From Thermoproteota archaeon (GTDB lineage: Archaea; Thermoproteota; Thermoprotei; Gearchaeales; Gearchaeaceae), in the NCBI GenBank assembly GCA_021324265.1, contig JAJPJK010000018.1, forward strand, positions 1 to 64,000: 64,000 nucleotides of DNA. Direction: 5' to 3'. The number at the start of each line of letters is the position of its first letter. Position 1 is the stretch's first letter. Below are positions 17,756 to 51,452 of the stretch, one piece after another. Under the pieces are notes generated by a model. It worked only from the letters and a program-made list of their open reading frames with translations. It searched no databases and was not told the DNA's origin. The position numbers and the translations under genes were made by a program.

Positions 17756-18493
17756 TTATGGACCTACTAGAATGCGCATCAAGCCTTTTTCATCAACAAT
17801 GTTCATCCTCTTTATTTTCATCTGAACAACTCTTGCGCTATCATGTCTAACTCCAGCAATTAAGGCAATTTCCTTCAGTGTTAAATACTTAAGTCTTGCT
17901 TGGCCAAGCATTTTCATGACAACAAGCCTCTTCAATCCTTGCCTCTCATAAATCTTGATTCTTTCTTCGAATTCTTTATATCTTCTGAAAAGATTGTTTT
18001 TTGCAAGGTTAAACATCTTCGCTACTTTATCAAAACTCATGTTTATGTTGTTTTTTCTAAGGTAATACATAAGGGCAATCGCTTCGAAAATTGGCTCTGC
18101 TCCGTTACCGTTCAAGAAGACCTTTGCTACATTCTTATATGCTTTGCCAATCCTCAAGAATTCGTCATTCATCAATTCTTTGTGTTGAGTTCTGATCATC
18201 TCATAAATTCTCATCCTCAGCTCCTTGCTATTATTCTGTTCCATAGCTGTTAGTTTTAACCTTGCAAGCATTCCATCTGTTAATTTCTTGCTATACTTCT
18301 TAGGCAGCTTAGCCTTCTTTAGGATTTTTGTATATGTTATTTCTTTTTTCATCTTTCTCTTCTTTGCTTCGCTTCTTGACTCAGAGAAGGAATATATCCT
18401 TATTTCGCTTAGCAGTCCACATTCTGAGCATACTAAGAATTCTGATTGGTCAGCTTTTACTAGCTTTCCTCCACATTCTTCACAAGCGCTCAT
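17756..18493 (-). CDS. TFIIB-like zinc-ribbon/helix-turn-helix protein
   Basis: 245 residues. A TFB-type zinc ribbon is at the N-terminus (C4, C7, C22, C25: CEECGG and CSECGLL), followed by a basic linker and an all-helical region with a cyclin-like part (PIFEAIALMYYLRKNNINMS) and a C-terminal helix-turn-helix (LTLKEIALIAGVRHDSARVV). It is shorter than true TFB (about 300 residues), I do not see the TFB B-reader motifs, and only one cyclin-like repeat is plain. It could be a divergent TFB paralogue or a zinc-ribbon regulator. The start overlaps the stop of the upstream small HTH gene (ATGA), so the two are co-expressed. Confidence 0.7.
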   Translation of the reverse strand: MSACEECGGKLVKADQSEFLVCSECGLLSEIRIYSFSESRSEAKKRKMKKEITYTKILKKAKLPKKYSKKLTDGMLARLKLTAMEQNNSKELRMRIYEMIRTQHKELMNDEFLRIGKAYKNVAKVFLNGNGAEPIFEAIALMYYLRKNNINMSFDKVAKMFNLAKNNLFRRYKEFEERIKIYERQGLKRLVVMKMLGQARLKYLTLKEIALIAGVRHDSARVVQMKIKRMNIVDEKGLMRILVGP

Positions 18494-18690
18494 TCCTTGA
18501 TGAAATATATCGTTCTGTATGAGAGCTTCTTGTACTTTACTCCTGGCATTTTGATTAGATGCTGGCTAACTTTCTGAGGAGTAGTTTCTATGCCTTTAGC
18601 TAATAGATAAGCGGTGATATCCTCAGCGGTAGCCTTTCCAAGCTCCAGCAGTGATTTGTAAAGCATAGCTTTAAAGTAAATAGTATCCAT
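18490..18690 (-). CDS. small winged-helix-like protein
   Basis: 66 residues. The middle (LGKATAEDITAYLLAKGIETTPQKVSQHLIKM) looks like a helix-turn-helix, followed by a short beta-wing (YKKLSYRTIYFIKE). No enzyme motif. It is translationally coupled to the TFIIB-like gene. Probably a DNA-binding partner; function unknown. Confidence 0.65.
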   Translation of the reverse strand: MDTIYFKAMLYKSLLELGKATAEDITAYLLAKGIETTPQKVSQHLIKMPGVKYKKLSYRTIYFIKE

Positions 18691-18722: not shown

Positions 18723-19148
18723 CTAGAGCTCTGCTACGGATATTACTCCAAGAGAAATACAGAGAATTCTAATATAATTTATATTATTATTAATAATTAG
18801 TGTATTAGAAAAGTTAAAATTATAAAAGATATAACTTCCATTAAAATTTTTTATAATATGATTAGGGTCATTGAGCTCTAGGAAGATCTTCTTGCTTAAC
18901 CCAATATAATTTTTTGTGATGTAAATCCAGGCGCCTTGAGGCAAATAAATCTTTATTGTAAGCGAGCTCAGAGGCTGACTGTATACGAATTGAATTGCAT
19001 TATTTATTTCTTGAACAGCCCTTAGCAACGCTTGATCTTCGAAATAGTTTTTGTCTAAGTATATAAGTGGGAGGCTGTTTATGAACGCTAACGAAATGAT
19101 TGCTAAGAGCGTGAATATGACAAGGTAATCAGAAAAATTGGCTGCCAT
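18723..19148 (-). CDS. membrane-anchored subunit of the pilus-like operon (tenth gene)
   Basis: 141 residues from the ATG at 19146-19148, chosen because it gives the TAATG coupling seen elsewhere in the operon. One N-terminal hydrophobic helix (DYLVIFTLLAIISLAFI) and an extracellular beta-rich part (LTIKIYLPQGAWIYITKN), a pilin-like layout without an obvious processing motif. I recognise no family. Last gene of the operon. Confidence 0.65.
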   Translation of the reverse strand: MAANFSDYLVIFTLLAIISLAFINSLPLIYLDKNYFEDQALLRAVQEINNAIQFVYSQPLSSLTIKIYLPQGAWIYITKNYIGLSKKIFLELNDPNHIIKNFNGSYIFYNFNFSNTLIINNNINYIRILCISLGVISVAEL

Positions 19149-19837
19149 TATGCAAAGAGCCAAAGAACTATGTTCTCTTGATTCTTAATTTCAATAAGTA
19201 ACTTATCTTTGTATGTACCATCAAAGATCAGGGTAAAGAAATCTCCGCTTCTTTGGGCAACAAAATCTACAACGCTTCCTTGTGAATAGGCAGTTATATT
19301 ATAGCTGGAATCCTTAATTTTCAAATCTTCGCTTATGATATAAACACTTGAGATAAAGATTGTAATGTAGTAGTAAACCCCTATACTTGTATTTGAAGCC
19401 CTTAGGCTTGCATCGAAGACATAGCTAGTTATGTTTGCAAGAATTGTGTTGTTTTCTTGAACTTTAGCTCTGAACGAAGCGCCTTTTCCCTTTAGGCAAT
19501 TAGACGTTATTTCGAAATCAAGGTTTGGCATTGTCCCGAAACTGCTATTTTTGAATATGACTTTTAGATTGCTCGTTGCTTGGTTCCAGTATGTTTTGGC
19601 ATCATTGGTAGCTTTCTGGGAAGCCAAAGCGCAGTCTATATTACCATTTAAGAGATCATGAAATGTTTTATTCGTTGCATATGATAGCGCAGAGGTATAA
19701 AATGAGAATATCGTTGAAGTTTTCGTTTCCTCCTCATCATCTATGACATATACTTGTAGCCTTAAGTTGGTGAAAGCGAGCGCTATAATTATTAACGATA
19801 TCACGAAAGAAGTTAATATAAGTGCTTGGCCTCTCAT
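19148..19837 (-). CDS. pilin-like minor subunit, operon gene 9
   Basis: 229 residues. It begins MRGQALILTSFVISLIIIAL: R-G-Q-A fits the archaeal class III signal pattern ([KRDE][GA] followed by permitted +1/+2 residues) directly before the hydrophobic helix. The rest is a Thr/Asn/Ser-rich extracellular domain with two cysteines (DCALAS, NCLKGKG). Separated by 1 nt from the preceding gene. Confidence 0.7.
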   Translation of the reverse strand: MRGQALILTSFVISLIIIALAFTNLRLQVYVIDDEEETKTSTIFSFYTSALSYATNKTFHDLLNGNIDCALASQKATNDAKTYWNQATSNLKVIFKNSSFGTMPNLDFEITSNCLKGKGASFRAKVQENNTILANITSYVFDASLRASNTSIGVYYYITIFISSVYIISEDLKIKDSSYNITAYSQGSVVDFVAQRSGDFFTLIFDGTYKDKLLIEIKNQENIVLWLFA

Positions 19838-19838
19838 T

Positions 19839-20246
19839 TCAACTAATCGCTAAGACAATGATTAAAATGTTTGAAGGACTGTTTCCGTTCACTGCTATAT
19901 AAGAGGACTCTGAATCTGCGTCATCGAAATAACTTCTTTGATAACTCCACATCAAATACCAGCTCGAGTTATAAAGAGAGATTCTAAAACCATATTCTAC
20001 AGGGATGATAGCTTCGGTTGCGTTAACTATCAAGAAATAGTTGCCTTTGAATACTTCTCTAAGAATTCCCGTATAGAGCAAATAAGCTAGAGTCTTTTCA
20101 GCAAGATCCTTTTTTTCCGTTTTGCTTCTAATCATTGCATTACTTGCGAGATATGGGTTTATGAAGAACATCGTCATAGTTAAAAGCAAACAAGCTAGTA
20201 GCGCTTCAATAACTCTTGAGATTGCTCTATGGCTGGCCATATACAT
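19839..20246 (-). CDS. pilin-like minor subunit, operon gene 8
   Basis: 135 residues; an ATG two codons in (20240) is equally possible. SHRAISRVIEALLACLLLTM has R-A-I-S before the hydrophobic helix, again compatible with prepilin peptidase processing. The exterior part is beta-rich and ends in a hydrophobic stretch (NILIIVLAIS). Overlaps the preceding gene by 20 nt (14 nt with the later start). Confidence 0.65.
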   Translation of the reverse strand: MYMASHRAISRVIEALLACLLLTMTMFFINPYLASNAMIRSKTEKKDLAEKTLAYLLYTGILREVFKGNYFLIVNATEAIIPVEYGFRISLYNSSWYLMWSYQRSYFDDADSESSYIAVNGNSPSNILIIVLAIS

Positions 20247-20631
20247 TTACCTCTATTACTACGAGGGTGTAGCTGGAATTCATGAATGCTCCCAAAGCCT
20301 TTGCTTCGCCTATGAAGCTAGGCAAGCTTGAATTTTTAGGATAAGTACCGTTCTTCAACAAATACACACTTTGTTCGTAGATATATATCCAGTATCTTAT
20401 CATTATGAATATCTTGGCATTTATTTTGTAGAATGAAGGTGTTGCTACGCTATCATTTAGGTGCTTCGTTGAAATTATGTTATCTCTTATCGCAATTGCA
20501 TATTCCAACAAGATAGATCCAATCTTATCTTCATCGTTTGCTGAAAGATAGATGTTGATGCTGAATAATGACCAGCTAAGCACCAATAAAAACAATGCTA
20601 TACCAAGGATAGTTTCTATCGAGCTCTCCAT
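20227..20631 (-). CDS. membrane-anchored subunit, operon gene 7
   Basis: 134 residues with an N-terminal hydrophobic helix (ILGIALFLLVLSWSLFSINI) and a soluble exterior part ending YTLVVIEVNVYG. No class III cleavage motif is evident. Start overlaps the TadC-like stop (TAATG). Unknown family. Confidence 0.62.
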   Translation of the reverse strand: MESSIETILGIALFLLVLSWSLFSINIYLSANDEDKIGSILLEYAIAIRDNIISTKHLNDSVATPSFYKINAKIFIMIRYWIYIYEQSVYLLKNGTYPKNSSLPSFIGEAKALGAFMNSSYTLVVIEVNVYGQP

Positions 20632-22502
20632 TATGGAACTTGGAAAATACTCATCATGTTAGTTATGCTGAGCGAGATAAAGCAGATCATACCGCATAGG
20701 ATTGCGTTCTTCGCACCTTCTACACTATTTCCTTCAGCATATCCTCCTAGAAACCCTAAAAAAATAGAGTTGAGATATCCTGCAACCGAAACAAGTTCTT
20801 TTATGCTTGAAAATGGGATGTTGAGATTCAATAAATTAAAAGAATAAACCATTGTGCTTGCTTGAGCGATAATATTAAACGTTGATACGAGGCTACCCAG
20901 CACAGCTAGCGAAATTCCCAATGAAAAGCCCAGTAGAGCTGTAATCATATAGCTAGAAAATCTGAAGAATTTCGTCCTCATCTTGTAAATCTTTCTTATG
21001 CTATCAAGCCTGTACACAAAATCAGCAAATTCTTCCATTGTAGCAGAATCTAGGGCAACCTTATCGCATTCCTCTAATGCTATGAATACCTGTTTAAAGA
21101 AACTTGGTAGCTTTTCTTTTTCCAGTATTTCCTCCACTGATATGCCCAGCATTCTAAGTAAGCTAATTTTCCTTAGGAAGTCTCCTGCATATTCATATCT
21201 CTCATGTATCTTATCAATGGCTTGGTAAAGACTATTGCCTTTTTTAACTTCTTCAGCTAAGTCTCTCACTATATTCGGTAGCTCATTCAATAATCTTTCA
21301 TTCTCAATTGAGCTTTTTCTATGCAATAAATAGTATCCTATAAGCAAAAACATTGCGCTTGAAAAGAAAGTCATGCTAAGATTAAGAAAGCCCATGAAAT
21401 TGAGTATGAAAAAAACAATTGGAGGAAGTAAAAGCAAGTATACTCTACTATCATGCTTCAATCCCATCCTCAGAAAGGGCAATGCGTAACCTTGTATCAT
21501 AAAAAAGAAGAGAATGAAGAAAACCGATGGAATTAAAAATAGCGTTGCGAAAAGCATGGAAAAAGTATTGCCTTGCATGAAGAGAAGTGTCATCATTGAA
21601 GCGATGGGGAGCAAAATGAAGACGATGAGTTGAGCTGCCAAAAGCACATTGAATCTATCTATGAACTCCTCGATCTTTTTTTCAAAAACTTTGAAGGTTT
21701 CCTTCATGTATTCTTTCATAATCGTATAGATCCCTGAGCCTAAGCTTATCGCAGAAATTGCCTGAAGTAATTTTTTGACGGATTCATCTCTTACAATTTT
21801 TGCATAAAGCGATATTGCATCTATGGGACCTATAGCTAGGAAAGTCTTAAGTCTCTCAATTTGCCTATAGATCCTGTTGAAGCTAGGGAACAATCTCAAC
21901 TTTCCAAGCGTGTTTATAGCTGAATAAGGATGTATGTTCGCTGCAGAAAAAGCAGTGATGAACATACTCGCTACAGGCAATTCTCTGCTTATTTTAGAAG
22001 TGAACTCTCCTTCCTTTATCGCAGGTAGTATCAATAAGTAGCCCAGTAAAAGGAAAGGGATGATGGATATGATCAATAAAATGAGTAGATTTGCTAAATT
22101 GCTTCCGATATCGTTCAAAAATATGGAAAACAATACGAAATTCAATATAAAGGTCATTATCGAAGTGAATAGCACGCTCAATATCAGCTCGTTATATTCC
22201 GCCGGAGTGTATCCTAGCTCCGTGTAATAAAGCCGGCCATAATTTTTATCGTTCTCCTTTTTATATATTTTGGTAAAGAAAAAGAGAGTAAATAAGTTCG
22301 ATAAGATTGTAATAAGTAAGTATGAAAATATCCCATACAATAATACAAATAAATTTGATGAAAATATAAAAATAAATAAAGAATAAATAACAACTGGAAG
22401 CTTTATAACAAATTTTATACCAAGCCTTTCTTTTTTAAGAATAAGCTTCAAAATTTTACCCTTTTTGTTCTCTTCTTCAATTAAAACGATCTCCTCACTC
22501 AT
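20631..22502 (-). CDS. TadC/FlaJ-type pilus assembly membrane protein
   Basis: 623 residues, highly hydrophobic, with two T2SSF-like cytosolic modules: the first around ISRELPVASMFITAFSAANIHPY and the second around LNELPNIVRDLAEEVKKGNSLYQ, each followed by membrane helices. This is the polytopic platform protein that works with the operon's ATPase. Length and double module match archaeal pilus platform proteins (Aap/Ups/FlaJ classes). Overlaps the ATPase gene by 8 nt. Confidence 0.88.
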   Translation of the reverse strand: MSEEIVLIEEENKKGKILKLILKKERLGIKFVIKLPVVIYSLFIFIFSSNLFVLLYGIFSYLLITILSNLFTLFFFTKIYKKENDKNYGRLYYTELGYTPAEYNELILSVLFTSIMTFILNFVLFSIFLNDIGSNLANLLILLIISIIPFLLLGYLLILPAIKEGEFTSKISRELPVASMFITAFSAANIHPYSAINTLGKLRLFPSFNRIYRQIERLKTFLAIGPIDAISLYAKIVRDESVKKLLQAISAISLGSGIYTIMKEYMKETFKVFEKKIEEFIDRFNVLLAAQLIVFILLPIASMMTLLFMQGNTFSMLFATLFLIPSVFFILFFFMIQGYALPFLRMGLKHDSRVYLLLLPPIVFFILNFMGFLNLSMTFFSSAMFLLIGYYLLHRKSSIENERLLNELPNIVRDLAEEVKKGNSLYQAIDKIHERYEYAGDFLRKISLLRMLGISVEEILEKEKLPSFFKQVFIALEECDKVALDSATMEEFADFVYRLDSIRKIYKMRTKFFRFSSYMITALLGFSLGISLAVLGSLVSTFNIIAQASTMVYSFNLLNLNIPFSSIKELVSVAGYLNSIFLGFLGGYAEGNSVEGAKNAILCGMICFISLSITNMMSIFQVP

Positions 22503-24084
22503 TTATTTCACCAATTTCTATGCCTACTTCTTCTTCTCCCAGTCTTTCAGTTAGCCCCTCTTGATGTTCCTCATTGCCTGTTTCAAAGGACTTAGGATTT
22601 TCGTAAAATTTCCATATAAGCTGTGTTACTGTTCTATAATCTAGGAGGTCTTCGTTCGTTTCAGCTTCTTTTTTCAACCTAGAGAAGAATTTATACCTCA
22701 ATTCAATCTCTGTTAGTAATTTCTTTTCATCCCATCCTCTTTCCTCCATTATTATTTTACTTGTAGGTAGTTTAAGCAATCCTTCTTCGTCTATTCTTTT
22801 GAAGCTATCATCTTGACTATTGAACTTAGCTACGCTATGAAATCTAGCTCTTTTTCTCTCCAATGATATTTCAAAGTCGAAGAAATCGGAGACCCTTCTT
22901 AGGAATACCTTTCTTGGAACACCTCTTTCATCTTCTTTTATCATGACATATTTTTTCACACCAACTAGCGCGTGTAGGGCTGAAAGGCTTCCTATATCAA
23001 CTTTTATAGGCTCTGATAATAACCTCTCTATCGCTGTTGTGTGAGATTCTGCATGGAAGGTCGTTAAGCCACCATGTCCAGTCATTATTGCCTGAGCCCA
23101 TATTTTTCCTTCTTCACCCCTTACTTCTCCTACTACTAGATAATCACCACTCATTCTTAATGCATGCTTTACAAGCATGAACATGTCTATATTGCCCTTT
23201 TCATCAATAGTCAAACTCTCTCTCGTTATCAAGGGGATCCAGTAAGGATGAGCTAGCCTAATTTCTGGAGTATCTTCTACTGTTATGATAGTTGCTCTCT
23301 CGTTTATACAGTTTGCCAGTGCATTGATCAAACTGGTCTTCCCGCATCCCATGCCTCCATATACTAAAATTGCTTTCTTGTGTTCTATGAGTAGCATCGA
23401 CCATGCAGCGATCCAAGGGTCTATTGTATTATTCACCAGTAATCTAGTCATACTCCAAGGTCTTTCTGGAAACTTTCTTATCGTTATGCTTGAACCTTTA
23501 TGACCAACTTCCTTTTTGTATGTAAGCGTGACCCTTGTCGTATCAGAGGTCCTTATCGATAACAAAGGTTTAAAAGCGCTTATACTTTTGCCACTCCTAT
23601 ATGCGAACTTCTCTGCATAGAGGTTAATTTCTTTTTCATCCAAAACAACATTCGTTACTAGTTTATCATAATCCGAGTGCACCACTCTTGCAGGTACATC
23701 TGGGCTAGGAACTTGTACATCTTCAACCTTAGGGTCTTTAACCAATGGATCAAGAGCTCCAAATCCAAAAATTTCTCTTTTAAGGAAATAGATTGATCTT
23801 TCATTTTTAATACCAAGTCTTCTAAGCTCTTTTTCGAAGTTGGAATCGTCGTTGATGTTTACAGCGCGTACTTTAAAGAGCAAATATTCAAGTGTTTCTC
23901 TTAAAGAATTAAGTTCTGCATCACTTATGGGAGGGTCCTCAACCAAGTATTTTCCATTAGCTGTTATGAAAATATGAGATAAACCAATTCTATATTCATC
24001 AATAATCGTTTCATTAGAGAGTGATACACGATTGATTTTGAAAAGTGAATAATTTGAGAAAAAAGAATTTGTAAACATATTCAC
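22495..24084 (-). CDS. type IV pilus/secretion ATPase (GspE/FlaI/TadA family)
   Basis: 529 residues. Walker A GGMGCGKT at 243-250, Asp box VEDTPEIRL near 270, Walker B LVVGEVRGEE near 317-324, and His box TGHGGLTTFHAE near 336-345. It powers pilin extrusion together with the downstream TadC/FlaJ protein. A C-terminal charged tail of about 60 residues is rich in Glu. Starts with ATG 4 nt inside the pilin gene end; a second Met at residue 3 is possible. Confidence 0.93.
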   Translation of the reverse strand: MNMFTNSFFSNYSLFKINRVSLSNETIIDEYRIGLSHIFITANGKYLVEDPPISDAELNSLRETLEYLLFKVRAVNINDDSNFEKELRRLGIKNERSIYFLKREIFGFGALDPLVKDPKVEDVQVPSPDVPARVVHSDYDKLVTNVVLDEKEINLYAEKFAYRSGKSISAFKPLLSIRTSDTTRVTLTYKKEVGHKGSSITIRKFPERPWSMTRLLVNNTIDPWIAAWSMLLIEHKKAILVYGGMGCGKTSLINALANCINERATIITVEDTPEIRLAHPYWIPLITRESLTIDEKGNIDMFMLVKHALRMSGDYLVVGEVRGEEGKIWAQAIMTGHGGLTTFHAESHTTAIERLLSEPIKVDIGSLSALHALVGVKKYVMIKEDERGVPRKVFLRRVSDFFDFEISLERKRARFHSVAKFNSQDDSFKRIDEEGLLKLPTSKIIMEERGWDEKKLLTEIELRYKFFSRLKKEAETNEDLLDYRTVTQLIWKFYENPKSFETGNEEHQEGLTERLGEEEVGIEIGEINE

Positions 24085-24590
24085 CTTTGAACTACTGCTA
24101 TGAAAGGTATAGTGCCTGCTGTTGTTTGTATTACGCCATTGACTTGCGTTAGCGATCCAATGGAAACATTATTAAAGGTAGCGGTAATGGTTTGAGTTTC
24201 ACCTGGGTTTATACTGGAGCATTGTTTAGTTGTTGTTGTAGTAGTAGTTGTCCCAGCATTTGTTGTGGTTGTTACAAAACTTACAGAACAATTATTAGAC
24301 GATGCAGTACTTGTGGTACTTCCTGTTATAGTCTGAATATATATTCCTGTTATGTTAGCTTGTAGATTACCTACATTCTTTAATGTAATGTACAAAACAA
24401 CATTGCTACCTTGTACTTGCAAGGTAGGTGTTCCTACAACGATAATATTTGCTTGCTTACTCGTAGAAATACCTAATCCGTAAAGCCAAGAAATTACCAG
24501 TGCAGCTATGCTTATCGATGCTATTACTAGAAGTATTGTTATTATCGGTGCAGAGATATCTCCTCTCTTGTTCTTAATTAGTTTCCTCAT
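24081..24590 (-). CDS. pilin with class III signal peptide
   Basis: 169 residues. NKRGDISAPIITILLVIASI: R9-G10 followed by D11-I12 matches the archaeal prepilin/prearchaellin processing pattern, with cleavage expected after G10, and the following segment is the assembly helix. The exterior domain is beta-rich and Thr-rich (a run of eight Thr between two cysteines, which may form a disulfide loop). It is the best candidate for the main pilin. Overlaps genes on both sides by 4 nt. Confidence 0.88.
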   Translation of the reverse strand: MRKLIKNKRGDISAPIITILLVIASISIAALVISWLYGLGISTSKQANIIVVGTPTLQVQGSNVVLYITLKNVGNLQANITGIYIQTITGSTTSTASSNNCSVSFVTTTTNAGTTTTTTTTKQCSSINPGETQTITATFNNVSIGSLTQVNGVIQTTAGTIPFIAVVQR

Positions 24591-25000
24591 CTCACTATAT
24601 TAGGGGGTATATAAAGAGGTGATGGTTTTGTTATGTAGACAATTCCATTTACGTATTGGAAAACTACTATGTTTGAACTCACAGTTCCATAAACGTTCAA
24701 AGGTGAAGGCATTGTTTCATTGATTCCGTAATAAGATATAATAAGGATATTAGTCCCATTGCCTCTAAGATAAACATATTTATTTAAAATTAATGTTATG
24801 TTCTCATTTTTATTATATTTCTGTCCATCATAATATATTTTTTGCAATATGTTTTTTATTTTATAATATATTAAATTAAATTCAAGACTATGATCACTAT
24901 AATAATAGAAGAAGTAAATATTCGAAGATAAAGAAATCAGCAATGCTGAAATGCAAAGCAAAGCAACAGTATTGAGGATCTCGATTATAGCTCTATCCAT
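24587..25000 (-). CDS. pilin-like minor subunit, operon gene 3
   Basis: 137 residues. MDRAIIEILNTVALLCISALL: R3-A4-I5-I6 fits the class III pattern before the hydrophobic helix. The exterior part is short and beta-rich (NITLILNKYVYLRGNGTNIL). One-base overlap with the upstream gene, 4-nt overlap with the pilin gene. Confidence 0.66.
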   Translation of the reverse strand: MDRAIIEILNTVALLCISALLISLSSNIYFFYYYSDHSLEFNLIYYKIKNILQKIYYDGQKYNKNENITLILNKYVYLRGNGTNILIISYYGINETMPSPLNVYGTVSSNIVVFQYVNGIVYITKPSPLYIPPNIVR

Positions 25001-25689
25001 TATACAGCCTGCTGGATCAAGTTCACCTTAATACCTATTAAATAGAAGTTGATTATCGATCTATCATTTATTTTCAAGGAATAAATTGTAGATCCATTGA
25101 TATAGAAGCTCAGCATGAATCCTAGTTGAAATATCCTCGTAAGCGTAACAGCATTCTTTTGTGATTCTATTCTGATCGAATTTTCACCTGTTATTTTTCC
25201 TGTAAAATTGAAATTGAGTATAGATACATAGAAATTATAGATTGTTATGTTTTCTAGCCCAGTTTTGTTTACTTCTATATTCAATGTAGCAATGATAGTT
25301 GTGTTTATTTCCCTAATGGGCTGGGAATTTATAGAATAGAGATCATTTTGGCTGTATTCACATATATTGGAGAGACAAAGCATATACAAGTTCAAGATCC
25401 AACTAAGCGTTTCGTTGGGCAAGCCTATAGAGAAATTAAAAGCAGTTTTCTGGATGTTTATACTCAATCCTCCAAGATTCAGAATCTTGATGTAATTCTG
25501 TTCATTCGTAAAATAAATATCATTCAATGTTTCCTTCAGCATTTTCGAAGCTGTTTCAGGATCTATGCTTGCAACCCTACTCGAGTAATCATATTGGTGT
25601 GCATTAAGGAAACTTAAGATCATGAAGGAAGATATGATCAGTATTGAAACTACGCTTAAGATCTTAATGAGTGTTAATGATATGTTCAT
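25000..25689 (-). CDS. membrane-anchored extracellular protein, operon gene 2
   Basis: 229 residues: an N-terminal hydrophobic helix (ILSVVSILIISSFMILSFL) and an Asn/Ser/Thr-rich beta domain with a close cysteine pair (MLCLSNICEYS). No clear prepilin motif. Many Asn-X-Ser/Thr sequons suggest surface exposure and N-glycosylation. ATGA overlap with gene 1. Confidence 0.62.
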   Translation of the reverse strand: MNISLTLIKILSVVSILIISSFMILSFLNAHQYDYSSRVASIDPETASKMLKETLNDIYFTNEQNYIKILNLGGLSINIQKTAFNFSIGLPNETLSWILNLYMLCLSNICEYSQNDLYSINSQPIREINTTIIATLNIEVNKTGLENITIYNFYVSILNFNFTGKITGENSIRIESQKNAVTLTRIFQLGFMLSFYINGSTIYSLKINDRSIINFYLIGIKVNLIQQAV

Positions 25690-27119
25690 GGCCAGCTGTT
25701 GTAGTATAGGATTATGTTTGAATAATCACCTGTTATGAGGATCTCATTTGTACTATTTAGCACAACTTTTATTTCTAGCATATTATATTGGAAGTTTGCT
25801 TGTATCGCCAATCTTGCATAACCTTGATTGTCTGTCAATGAATAGGATATCGGGACGTTGTCTGCTAGCAAGATGACGGTAGAATTTGGAATGGGACTGA
25901 AGTCACTTAATCTAATTAACTTTATGGTCACGAAATTTTTATCATGAGTCAATACTATGCTTGCAACAGTATCCCATGCTAGGTTTGCTGCATAGCTATT
26001 AGGAATAAGCCCTCCATCATAGTACTGAGGATAGAAGTTCAAGATTCCATACAAAGCTCTAAGTTTATTCACTATAATCCCTTTGTTGAGTGTGAAATTC
26101 AAATAGCCATTCTTATCGCATGCAGGTGAAGACATGGAAAGCCCCCTTAAGTTTAGGCTTATTACGTTCTCCTTGCCGATCACCATTCCTGAATTATCGG
26201 CCCATTGAAGAGCAAATTTTACGATATAAGCATCGCTAGTATCGTATATATTTACAACCTTCGGTAATACACCCATGACTTTTACTTCAGTCGAGTTAAA
26301 AGCTGAATATGTGTAATTTTGGGTTGAAAAGGTTGTTCTTATAGTGATCTTAACATTACTGAAGATACTGAGGTATATATAACCAGTCGAATTGGGCAGC
26401 CCCAGTTCATAATTTCCTTCAGGAATCGTTATATTGACAATTAGCGATTTCGAGGGTGTAAACTGTATTGTTTTATTCAATTCAATGGTATCTACAGATG
26501 AAACTTCACTTCCAAGCCTTTTGAGTATTAGGCTGCTGGTTTTCACCAATGTATTAATTGTTAGATTTCCTTTGCCTAGATAGCTCGTACTAGGGAAATT
26601 TATAGTAAGTTTAGCCTCAATTTTTATCTTCTCCAGCGGTAGAAAAACCTTTCCAGCTTCATTGTTGATCGCATCCTCGATGGTAATATTTATGCTACTA
26701 TAGCTTGAACCTATTTTAGAAACAATGAAATAAAGGCTAGCATAAGCTTTTCCTCCGATGACTTGTATTACATAAAGGTTGCCCGTGAACGTGGCTGTAG
26801 TATTTGCTGATAAAGGATTTGCGATTTCAATATCATATGAAGCACCCCATGAATTGAAAATGTATCCAGAAGGGAAAATGGCAGTTATTCTATGCTTCCC
26901 ATAGGGGTATGCTATTATATCGCCACTTTGATGAAACTGGTTGTCTATATAAACTCCGAAGCCTGAACCTGTTAGCAAGACAATATTGTTTCCAGTCATT
27001 GAATAAACGCCTATTTTAAGCATAATGCTAGTTGTATCAGCACTTAAACTATGAACATTTGATGGTATGATATATAATAGGATCACCAAAATGAAAATCC
27101 AAGTTTTTAACTTCTTCAT
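25686..27119 (-). CDS. secreted beta-rich protein, first gene of the pilus-like operon
   Basis: 477 residues with a classical Sec signal peptide (basic KKLK, hydrophobic core IFILVILLYIIPS, residues ~1-24). Residues ~45-105 resemble a listerial-type B repeat (YPYGKHRITAIFPSGYIFNS followed by W-G). The C-terminal ~70 residues resemble a carboxypeptidase-regulatory/Ig-like fold (SPIPNSTVILLADNVP, LTDNQGYARLAI). No C-terminal anchor. Possibly an adhesin or tip/cell-surface protein of the machine. Not recognised at family level. Confidence 0.65.
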   Translation of the reverse strand: MKKLKTWIFILVILLYIIPSNVHSLSADTTSIMLKIGVYSMTGNNIVLLTGSGFGVYIDNQFHQSGDIIAYPYGKHRITAIFPSGYIFNSWGASYDIEIANPLSANTTATFTGNLYVIQVIGGKAYASLYFIVSKIGSSYSSINITIEDAINNEAGKVFLPLEKIKIEAKLTINFPSTSYLGKGNLTINTLVKTSSLILKRLGSEVSSVDTIELNKTIQFTPSKSLIVNITIPEGNYELGLPNSTGYIYLSIFSNVKITIRTTFSTQNYTYSAFNSTEVKVMGVLPKVVNIYDTSDAYIVKFALQWADNSGMVIGKENVISLNLRGLSMSSPACDKNGYLNFTLNKGIIVNKLRALYGILNFYPQYYDGGLIPNSYAANLAWDTVASIVLTHDKNFVTIKLIRLSDFSPIPNSTVILLADNVPISYSLTDNQGYARLAIQANFQYNMLEIKVVLNSTNEILITGDYSNIILYYNSWP

Positions 27120-50267: not shown

Positions 50268-50975
50268 TTATTGTTTTAGAAGAAAACTCACGAAGCCTAA
50301 ACTGAGATCTCCAAAAACTATTGTGAAAGGTATAGAGATTGCAATGTAAACCAAAAAAGGTTGCGCTTTCTCATACCATTCACACACATATTCTTTCTTT
50401 TCGAAATCGAATTCTCTAATATCCGATCCTAAATTTAGTTTGCCATTCTTAAGTGCTGGCACGTAAAACTTACTCTTATAATACTCTTCTTCACTCAACT
50501 TTTGGGAAAATATGAATAGCATGACTTTCCTTGATATCGGAGTTTTTTTATTGAAGAGCTTTTTTTCTTTGATGTACTTGTTAACGTTGTGAAAGACATT
50601 TACGAATATGTAGAATGCAGATATTATCACAGAGTTGAAAACGATTGAAATGGGGAAAACTGGCATAACGGGTAATATTGTTTCAAATGGCGAGTATGGA
50701 ATAGCTATAGATAACGTCCAGATTGCCTTAGCATCAGCTCCTCCGAATTTGAAAACATAATATAAAAGGATTCCAAACAAAAAACATGGAAGGAAGTTGA
50801 TGATTAGTTTCATTAAACCTAGCATGTAAAAAGAAGAAGGTAAAGTTAGAATCGCAAGGATTATCCATAATCTGTCTTCTACCTCGCGTTTTTTAATATC
50901 CTTGAATGTAGCAATCCCAAAAGCAATCATCGTTATCGTAAGGTTGTAAAAGATCAGGATCTCTCTTAAGTCCAC
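50268..50975 (-). CDS. archaeal type IV prepilin peptidase (GxGD aspartic protease)
   Basis: 235 residues with GTG start at 50973-50975; a longer frame from 51023 collides with the divergent gene start. Polytopic membrane protein. Catalytic aspartates are visible in FKDIKKREVEDR (D26) and the GxGD-type motif GGADAK (GGAD, D81), as in PibD/EppA/FlaK. After the N-terminal membrane part there is an extended charged region, unusually long for PibD-like enzymes, then a final membrane segment. It would cleave class III signal peptides such as KRG/DIS of the pilin at 24081. Confidence 0.86.
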   Translation of the reverse strand: MDLREILIFYNLTITMIAFGIATFKDIKKREVEDRLWIILAILTLPSSFYMLGLMKLIINFLPCFLFGILLYYVFKFGGADAKAIWTLSIAIPYSPFETILPVMPVFPISIVFNSVIISAFYIFVNVFHNVNKYIKEKKLFNKKTPISRKVMLFIFSQKLSEEEYYKSKFYVPALKNGKLNLGSDIREFDFEKKEYVCEWYEKAQPFLVYIAISIPFTIVFGDLSLGFVSFLLKQ

Positions 50976-51017
50976 GATAAAGTAAATTTTTTTAAAGTAT
51001 AAAGGCTCCCTAGTAAT

Positions 51018-51452
51018 ATGCATCCTTTAAAATCAACTGTTATAGCATACTTCGTCATAATGCATGGCATTACAACTGCCTATGCTATATTCGTTCTTCA
51101 AACAAGTCCCTTTATAACCTTTCTAATTGCATCTATAGGTTCGCTTGTATTACTTTTGATTTCTTCTACAATTTTTTTAGATAATGTTGTTTTAACAAAG
51201 AGAGCTAAAAACAAACACTACCTCATATTTCATCTTTTATTCACGATCCCCATCACGCTTTTTTACTATCTACCAGTTTTCTATTCGAAAACGATCATTA
51301 AAGCAATAGGTTATGTCTTTCCCTCCATAGCTCAATACCTATTATGGCTCTCTTATAGCCCGGCTTATGCTTTGTTTATTTATCCACAATTTATAATATC
51401 TATGATACTAACTTTATTTGTATATTACTATTTAAGAAGTATAAAAAAATAA
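51018..51452 (+). CDS. four-helix membrane protein, unknown
   Basis: 144 residues with four hydrophobic segments (e.g. FITFLIASIGSLVLLLIS, YLIFHLLFTIPITLFYYL). No recognised family. Head to head with the prepilin peptidase; the 42-nt spacer contains AT-rich elements for both directions. Confidence 0.55.
   Translation: MHPLKSTVIAYFVIMHGITTAYAIFVLQTSPFITFLIASIGSLVLLLISSTIFLDNVVLTKRAKNKHYLIFHLLFTIPITLFYYLPVFYSKTIIKAIGYVFPSIAQYLLWLSYSPAYALFIYPQFIISMILTLFVYYYLRSIKK

What the first reader, a model, noticed from the sequence alone, without database searches (positions are those of the whole stretch)
18723..27119. Ten-gene type IV pilus-like machine with many small anchored subunits
Ten genes are packed with ATGA/TAATG overlaps or a gap of at most 1 nt. 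They include a GspE/FlaI ATPase, a double-module TadC/FlaJ protein, one clear pilin, about six single-helix small proteins of unknown family and a large secreted protein. Archaeal Aap/Ups/archaellum loci as I know them have fewer such subunits, and no archaellum genes (arlF, arlG, arlH) are present. This looks like an undescribed subtype or a secretion device.
Basis: partly seen in the sequence, partly recalled or inferred. Interest (0 to 1): 0.75.

Follow-up and report, generated by a model that had tools for sequence, protein, structure and literature searches.

The report
Archaeal pilus operon with minor pilins
Ten tightly packed archaeal genes encode the motor, membrane platform, main filament protein and a set of small accessory proteins of a type IV pilus (a hair-like surface filament); it is a fast-evolving variant of a type of pilus gene cluster already described in other archaea, not a new kind of machine.

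Summary
Ten minus-strand ORFs (A-J, 18723-27119) overlap by 1-20 nt or sit 1 nt apart. All ten are conserved, as one operon at the same genomic site, in two other genomes of the same family, so they form a real module; there the operon is circularly permuted (EFGHIJ-ABCD instead of ABCD-EFGHIJ). E is a VirB11/FlaI-class ATPase, F a double TadC/UpsF-like platform, and D a major pilin matching solved archaeal pilins. The genome's only prepilin peptidase lies in this window (50268-51023), and the genome has no archaellin. This is the cell's only ordinary type IV pilus (T4P) apparatus found here.

"Undescribed subtype or secretion device" is mostly not supported. H and I belong to small-subunit families found in Desulfurococcales-like, Thermoproteaceae and euryarchaeal T4P loci (H-g4: hhalign 90%; I resembles Pfam DUF7261). 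The order F-G-H-I recurs. Nearly the same layout occurs in another Thermoproteia genome (L139), and a pilin plus six small genes in L115, probably Thermoproteus uzoniensis. Makarova et al. 2016 already noted "at least 6 additional" pilin-like components there, and 3-4 untraced minor pilins in Desulfurococcales. What is new is a lineage-specific set: A, B, C, G and J have no secure homologues outside the family.

The parts
25686..27119 (-). A: 477-aa secreted beta-rich protein (Sec-type signal); candidate adhesin or surface-layer-associated subunit
   Evidence: N-terminal TM at residues 8-26 only; homologues of 675 and 665 aa in both sister operons at 19-26% identity; a sister copy weakly matches Divergent InlB B-repeat, E 0.036; AlphaFold mean pLDDT only 44, mostly strands
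25000..25689 (-). B: 229-aa single-N-helix small subunit without a recognisable cleaved leader; candidate minor pilin
   Evidence: orthologues in G001/G002; no Pfam family
24587..25000 (-). C: 137-aa single-N-helix small subunit; candidate minor pilin
   Evidence: orthologues in G001/G002; hhalign 11% (score 24.6) to g2 of Desulfurococcales-like T4P loci, above every reversed control (max 19.4)
24081..24590 (-). D: 169-aa major pilin with class III signal peptide (KNKRG/DISAPI)
   Evidence: phmmer to solved archaeal pilins 8fjs 4.7e-6, 8tib 1.9e-4, 6w8x 4.8e-4; 3-sequence HMM hits pilins of many other T4P loci down to 4e-11
22495..24084 (-). E: 529-aa pilus assembly ATPase (VirB11/FlaI/GspE class), intact P-loop GGMGCGKT
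   Evidence: PF00437 9.5e-27; FlaI model 247 bits against a cut-off of 550; PDB 2oap 4e-57, FlaI 4ii7 7e-48
20631..22502 (-). F: 623-aa double TadC/UpsF-like membrane platform
   Evidence: NCBIfam UpsF 2.7e-23 over residues 102-554, 82.5 bits against a cut-off of 400; about 10 TM helices; HMM hits platform proteins of other T4P loci down to 1.7e-21
20227..20631 (-). G: 134-aa single-N-helix small subunit (MESSIETIL); candidate minor pilin
   Evidence: orthologues in sisters; syntenic with x3, p1 and g3, the gene before the H homologue in other T4P loci
19839..20246 (-). H: 135-aa signature minor pilin (RAxxRVIEALLA N-terminus)
   Evidence: HMM hits T4P loci L083 3.6e-5 and L081 1.5e-4, with reciprocal hits by the g4 HMM on the two sister H proteins at 3e-4 and 2e-3; hhalign to g4 89.6%, E 1.9e-6; AlphaFold helix plus 4-stranded sheet, pLDDT 71
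19148..19837 (-). I: 229-aa minor pilin-like subunit with class III-like leader (MRG/QALIL), DUF7261-like
   Evidence: hhalign score 31.0 (38%) to the DUF7261-like protein of a euryarchaeal locus, 27.5 to g5, 25.8 to x5; reversed controls at most 19.4
18723..19163 (-). J: 146-aa small subunit (real start probably ATG at 19148); candidate minor pilin
   Evidence: orthologues in sisters; hhalign 20% (score 26.6) to p4, the gene at the same position in L144/L105
50268..51023 (-). Prepilin (type IV leader) peptidase, the only one found in the genome; needed in trans for D, H and I
   Evidence: PF01478 35.3 bits against a cut-off of 26.5
18490..18690 (-). 66-aa winged-helix-like protein downstream; possible regulator, not conserved at the sister loci
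   Evidence: weak Arg_repressor match, 0.034; T-run and TATA-like sequence between J and this gene
17756..18493 (-). 245-aa TFIIB-like protein (zinc ribbon only recognisable); possible regulator of the operon
   Evidence: PF08271 5e-4, below cut-off; TFIIB homologues in T4P loci are described in PMC4858521

Best explanation
This is the complete assembly locus of an archaeal type IV pilus with its own set of minor pilins. Inferred mechanism: the ATPase E turns ATP hydrolysis into movement of the platform F. F pulls mature D subunits, trimmed by the prepilin peptidase encoded at 50268-51023, out of the membrane into a helical filament. H and I (peptidase-type leaders) and the leaderless single-helix proteins G, J, B and C form the initiating, tip or collar complex. 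A, exported through Sec, decorates the tip or links the pilus to the cell surface for adhesion. Shown here: gene content, homology of D, E, F, H and I to T4P components, and conservation as one unit. Inferred: the roles of A, B, C, G and J, filament formation and function (adhesion most likely).
For: D matches solved archaeal T4P pilins. E and F match archaeal pilus/archaellum ATPase and platform families. The ten genes stay together in two sister genomes despite 19-55% identity and a rotated order. H and I have homologues in T4P loci of other orders. The order F-G-H-I(-J) is the best-scoring assignment against the x and p series (rank 1 of 24 each) and the g series (rank 1 of 6). L139 shows pilin-2 small-ATPase-TadC-3 small, with D 94% and the p2/H family 94%/12%. 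One prepilin peptidase and no archaellin are in the genome.
Against: B, C, G and J are linked to minor pilins only by position, size, topology and weak profile scores. Four of the six small proteins lack a recognisable class III leader, so they may be membrane-anchored collar proteins (ArlF/ArlG-like) rather than pilins. AlphaFold of A is unusable, and the fold search with H gave nothing significant. No filament has been seen.
Confidence: 0.86

Rival explanations
1. A type II-like secretion device: the D/H/I set forms only a short pseudopilus that pushes A (or other substrates) through the surface layer.
For: A large Sec-exported protein is co-transcribed, and several minor subunits resemble the pseudopilin set of type II secretion in number.
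Against: D is most similar to pilins solved as long filaments. Similar large secreted proteins in archaeal T4P loci are read as adhesins or S-layer proteins (PMC4858521). No secretin-like conduit is needed or present.
Confidence: 0.08
2. An envelope-anchored machine in which the leaderless small proteins form an ArlF/ArlG-like stator or collar rather than minor pilins, possibly allowing pilus rotation or twitching. (This is a different role for some parts of the same pilus, so it overlaps with the best explanation.)
For: B, C, G and J start directly at the helix without a basic cleavage site; the FlaI model is the best NCBIfam hit of E.
Against: No archaellin in the genome; E is far below the FlaI cut-off (247 against 550 bits); H and I carry leader-like motifs shared with T4P loci.
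Confidence: 0.12
3. A DNA-exchange or UV-inducible aggregation pilus, as Ups.
For: UpsF is the best NCBIfam model for F.
Against: UpsF score 82.5 against a cut-off of 400; the UpsA match of D is weak (0.0032; 17.6 against 130).
Confidence: 0.05

Closest known systems
Complex T4P loci of Thermoproteaceae (L115 = G031, probably Thermoproteus uzoniensis by replicon length 1,936,063 bp; L090 = G006)
   Same: Pilin plus six single-helix genes in series, an H-like (x4) followed by an I-like (x5) gene, a large secreted protein, ATPase and double TadC; [quoted passage not shown]
   Different: ATPase/TadC are on the other strand; x1, x2, x3 and x6 not provably homologous to B, C, G and J
Desulfurococcales-like T4P loci with g1-g5 (L075, L076, L079, L081, L083, L085, L103)
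   Same: Double TadC; g4 is homologous to H (hhalign 90%) and g5 resembles I; order g3-g4-g5 matches G-H-I
   Different: Five extra subunits, some much longer (g3 about 400 aa, g5 about 730-930 aa); ATPase in another clade of the tree
L139 (G005, same class)
   Same: Pilin-two small-ATPase-TadC-three small, with a D homologue (94%), a p2/H-type gene and an I-like gene in the same positions
   Different: No clear A or J in the run; ATPase very divergent
Euryarchaeal T4P small-subunit sets (Pfam DUF7261/7266/7287/7288/7289; L059)
   Same: DUF7261-like protein resembles I (38%); x4/p2, relatives of H, lean to DUF7288
   Different: Window proteins themselves do not reach any of these Pfam models
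Aap, Ups and Bas pili of Sulfolobales
   Same: ATPase, platform, PilA-type pilins
   Different: Aap has five machinery genes; Ups/Bas models far below cut-off for E and F

Membership tests
Archaeal type IV pilus system | VirB11/GspE-class assembly ATPase | tested here: met
   PF00437 9.5e-27, PDB 2oap/4ii7
Archaeal type IV pilus system | TadC/PilC-type multi-TM platform | tested here: met
   UpsF model 2.7e-23 across 102-554 (below its equivalog cut-off); about 10 TM; HMM hits platforms of other loci at 1.7e-21
Archaeal type IV pilus system | Pilin with class III signal and N-terminal hydrophobic helix | tested here: met
   D against solved pilins, 4.7e-6; KNKRG/DISAPI leader
Archaeal type IV pilus system | Prepilin peptidase available | tested here: met
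   window 50268-51023, PF01478 over cut-off
Archaeal type IV pilus system | Filaments observed | not testable with these tools
   needs microscopy
T4P variant with a dedicated minor-pilin set (Makarova 2016: Desulfurococcales 4A, T. uzoniensis) | several additional single-helix subunits encoded with pilin, ATPase and TadC | tested here: met
   six in the window; 4-8 in related loci
T4P variant with a dedicated minor-pilin set (Makarova 2016: Desulfurococcales 4A, T. uzoniensis) | sequence homology of the extra subunits | tested here: inconclusive
   H and I yes; C and J weak; G and B only positional
T4P variant with a dedicated minor-pilin set (Makarova 2016: Desulfurococcales 4A, T. uzoniensis) | ATPase in the same clade | tested here: inconclusive
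   E groups with L126, then with L115/L090/L105/L144 (support 0.86), long branches; the paper's own clade references were not included
Archaellum | archaellin (arlB) and arlI-level ATPase | tested here: not met
   no PF01917 hit genome-wide at E up to 1; FlaI model 247 bits, cut-off 550
Ups pilus | UpsE/UpsF/UpsA equivalogs | tested here: not met
   UpsF 82.5 against 400; UpsA 17.6 against 130
Bindosome | BasE equivalog | tested here: not met
   185 bits against a cut-off of 1000

The most novel reading that the evidence does not exclude
The five subunits without secure homologues (A, B, C, G and J), most of them leaderless single-helix proteins, make a structure not present in known archaeal pili, for example a trans-envelope collar or an export tip that delivers A, so that this family of Thermoproteota carries a functionally distinct pilus/secretion hybrid.
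Probability: 0.08. Interest if true: 0.6.

Novelty: new variant of a known kind. Interest (0 to 1): 0.3.

Why it matters
It links three previously separate groups of archaeal minor pilins (Thermoproteaceae, Desulfurococcales-like and euryarchaeal DUF72xx proteins) through two shared subunits and a shared gene order. This suggests one fast-evolving minor-pilin set rather than many unrelated ones. If true, the structure of one H/I pair would explain an accessory complex found in many archaea. The specific locus is otherwise an ordinary pilus operon of an uncultured lineage.

Tried and rejected
Archaellum: rejected, no archaellin and the ATPase is below the FlaI cut-off. Ups, Bas and Aap membership: rejected on cut-offs and gene set. 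Direct Pfam/NCBIfam annotation of A, B, C, G, H, I and J: nothing above chance. Homologues of A, B, C, G, I and J by 3-sequence HMMs in 105 fetched loci (mostly ATPase neighbourhoods): none outside the two sister genomes. Same-order genomes G003/G004: their T4P loci have pilin, ATPase and TadC but not this set. Matching B and C to x1 and x2: no better than other pairings (diagonal rank 6 of 720 over all six genes). AlphaFold of A (pLDDT 44) and a PDB fold search with the H model (no match with E up to 0.001): uninformative. The ATPase tree was read cautiously because of long branches. Name of the window's own species: not obtained; the nearest named relative is crenarchaeote SCGC AAA261-N23. 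The automatic small-gene count mis-scored the window itself (an id mismatch in my script); the window count is taken.
Full report
OBSERVATION. Ten minus-strand ORFs lie at the stated coordinates. In order of transcription they are A (25686-27119) to J (18723-19163). Every junction is an overlap of 1-20 nt or a 1-nt gap. The listed TTG start of J is probably wrong: the sister proteins align from the ATG at 19148, which makes I/J a TAATG junction. Upstream of A there is an AT-rich box about 25 nt before the ATG (sequence; reading it as a leaderless archaeal promoter is inference). A T-run follows J.

REALITY AND CONSERVATION. The window belongs to a 1.45-Mb, 95% complete genome of class-level Thermoproteia kin. 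Both carry all ten genes as one run beside the same neighbours, the release factor aRF1 and an amino-acid-kinase family gene. Their order is E-F-G-H-I-J-A-B-C-D, whereas the window has A-B-C-D-E-F-G-H-I-J. Identities run from 19% (A) to 55% (E). Conservation of a complete ten-gene set through such divergence and a rearrangement shows that the set works together.

WHAT THE PARTS ARE. E is a VirB11/FlaI-class ATPase (PF00437 9.5e-27; PDB 2oap, 4ii7). It falls far below the curated cut-offs for the archaellum (247 of 550 bits) and bindosome (185 of 1000) equivalogs. F is a double TadC; its best model is UpsF, below cut-off. D is a pilin, with phmmer matches to five solved archaeal T4P pilins at E of 0.01 or better, the best 4.7e-6. 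The only prepilin peptidase found in the genome is in this window at 50268-51023. No archaellin is present. Besides E, the genome has two divergent ATPases. One on contig 15 lies next to a TFIIB-like gene and has a cysteine-rich N-terminus (L042). This resembles the two-component '4D' system of Makarova et al. 2016 (PMC4858521). The other, on contig 20, does not match the locus. So the locus is the cell's only ordinary pilus ATPase found here.

THE SMALL PROTEINS. Direct library searches give nothing. I therefore fetched about 80 ATPase neighbourhoods from the related genomes and built profiles from the three family members. A, B, C, G, I and J hit only the sister loci. H hits other T4P loci (3.6e-5 to 0.015), and the profile of those proteins (g4) hits the two sister H proteins back. 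hhalign H-g4 gives 89.6%, E 1.9e-6, over 88 columns that extend past the membrane helix. I scores 31.0 against a DUF7261-like protein of a euryarchaeal T4P locus, 27.5 against g5 and 25.8 against x5. C scores 24.6 against g2 and J 26.6 against p4. Ninety comparisons with reversed profiles never exceeded 19.4. The reversed control does not remove all bias from shared N-terminal helices, so the matches for C and J are leads only. Gene order adds independent support. Pairing G-H-I-J in order with x3-x6 or p1-p4 is the best of 24 assignments each time, and G-H-I with g3-g5 the best of 6. The x-p comparison ranks second, and adding B and C to the x comparison ranks sixth of 720.

PRECEDENTS. L115 (probably Thermoproteus uzoniensis from its replicon length; inference) has a pilin followed by six small single-helix genes and a large secreted protein, with ATPase and TadC divergent; L090 is alike. 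L139 of another family has pilin-two small-ATPase-TadC-three small, almost the window's plan. L144 has TadC followed by four small genes of similar sizes. Desulfurococcales-like loci have five. Makarova et al. [quoted passage not shown] uzoniensis, with complex loci in other Thermoproteales.

HOW IT MOST LIKELY WORKS. E and F assemble D into a pilus (inference from established T4P biology). H and I carry leader-like motifs (RAQ or RGQ before the hydrophobic stretch) and would be processed by the peptidase at 50 kb. G, J, B and C begin directly at the helix and may be unprocessed minor subunits or an envelope collar. The AlphaFold model of H is a helix plus a four-stranded sheet (pLDDT 71), compatible with a minor pilin, but no solved structure matched significantly. 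A is Sec-exported and strand-rich; an adhesin or surface-anchoring role is the likeliest, by analogy with the large secreted proteins of other archaeal T4P loci. With one ATPase, any retraction would have to use the same motor, as discussed for Aap.

VERDICT. The claim of an undescribed subtype or secretion device reduces to a lineage-specific, fast-evolving variant of a known class of complex archaeal T4P loci. The useful extra is the recognition that H and I connect minor-pilin sets hitherto treated as unrelated.

Noticed in passing
L034:7382-9907 (G001) and L035:7845-10337 (G002): The sister ATPases carry an intein of roughly 310 aa inserted in the conserved motif VED/TPE (PF14890, 2.9e-18); the window's ATPase is intein-free.
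   Followed up: partly
L144:7339-9930: Another T4P ATPase (863 aa) has two homology segments split near the P-loop (query 249/250), probably a second intein site in this protein family.
   Followed up: no
window 17756-18690: A 66-aa winged-helix-like gene and a TFIIB-like gene (zinc ribbon only) follow the operon after a T-run and a TATA-like box; they are absent at the sister loci.
   Followed up: partly
L042:9209-12261 (G000 contig 15): A divergent VirB11-like ATPase with a cysteine-rich N-terminus sits beside a TFIIB-like gene, resembling the puzzling two-component '4D' systems of Makarova et al. 2016; a similar pair is in L046 of the other family in the order.
   Followed up: partly
L046:3350-4690 (G003): Three small single-helix genes stand beside a TFIIB gene and the 4D-like ATPase; they might be subunits of that otherwise pilin-less system.
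   Followed up: no
window 18723-27119 against L034/L035: The operon is circularly permuted between genera (ABCD-EFGHIJ and EFGHIJ-ABCD) at the same genomic site.
   Followed up: yes
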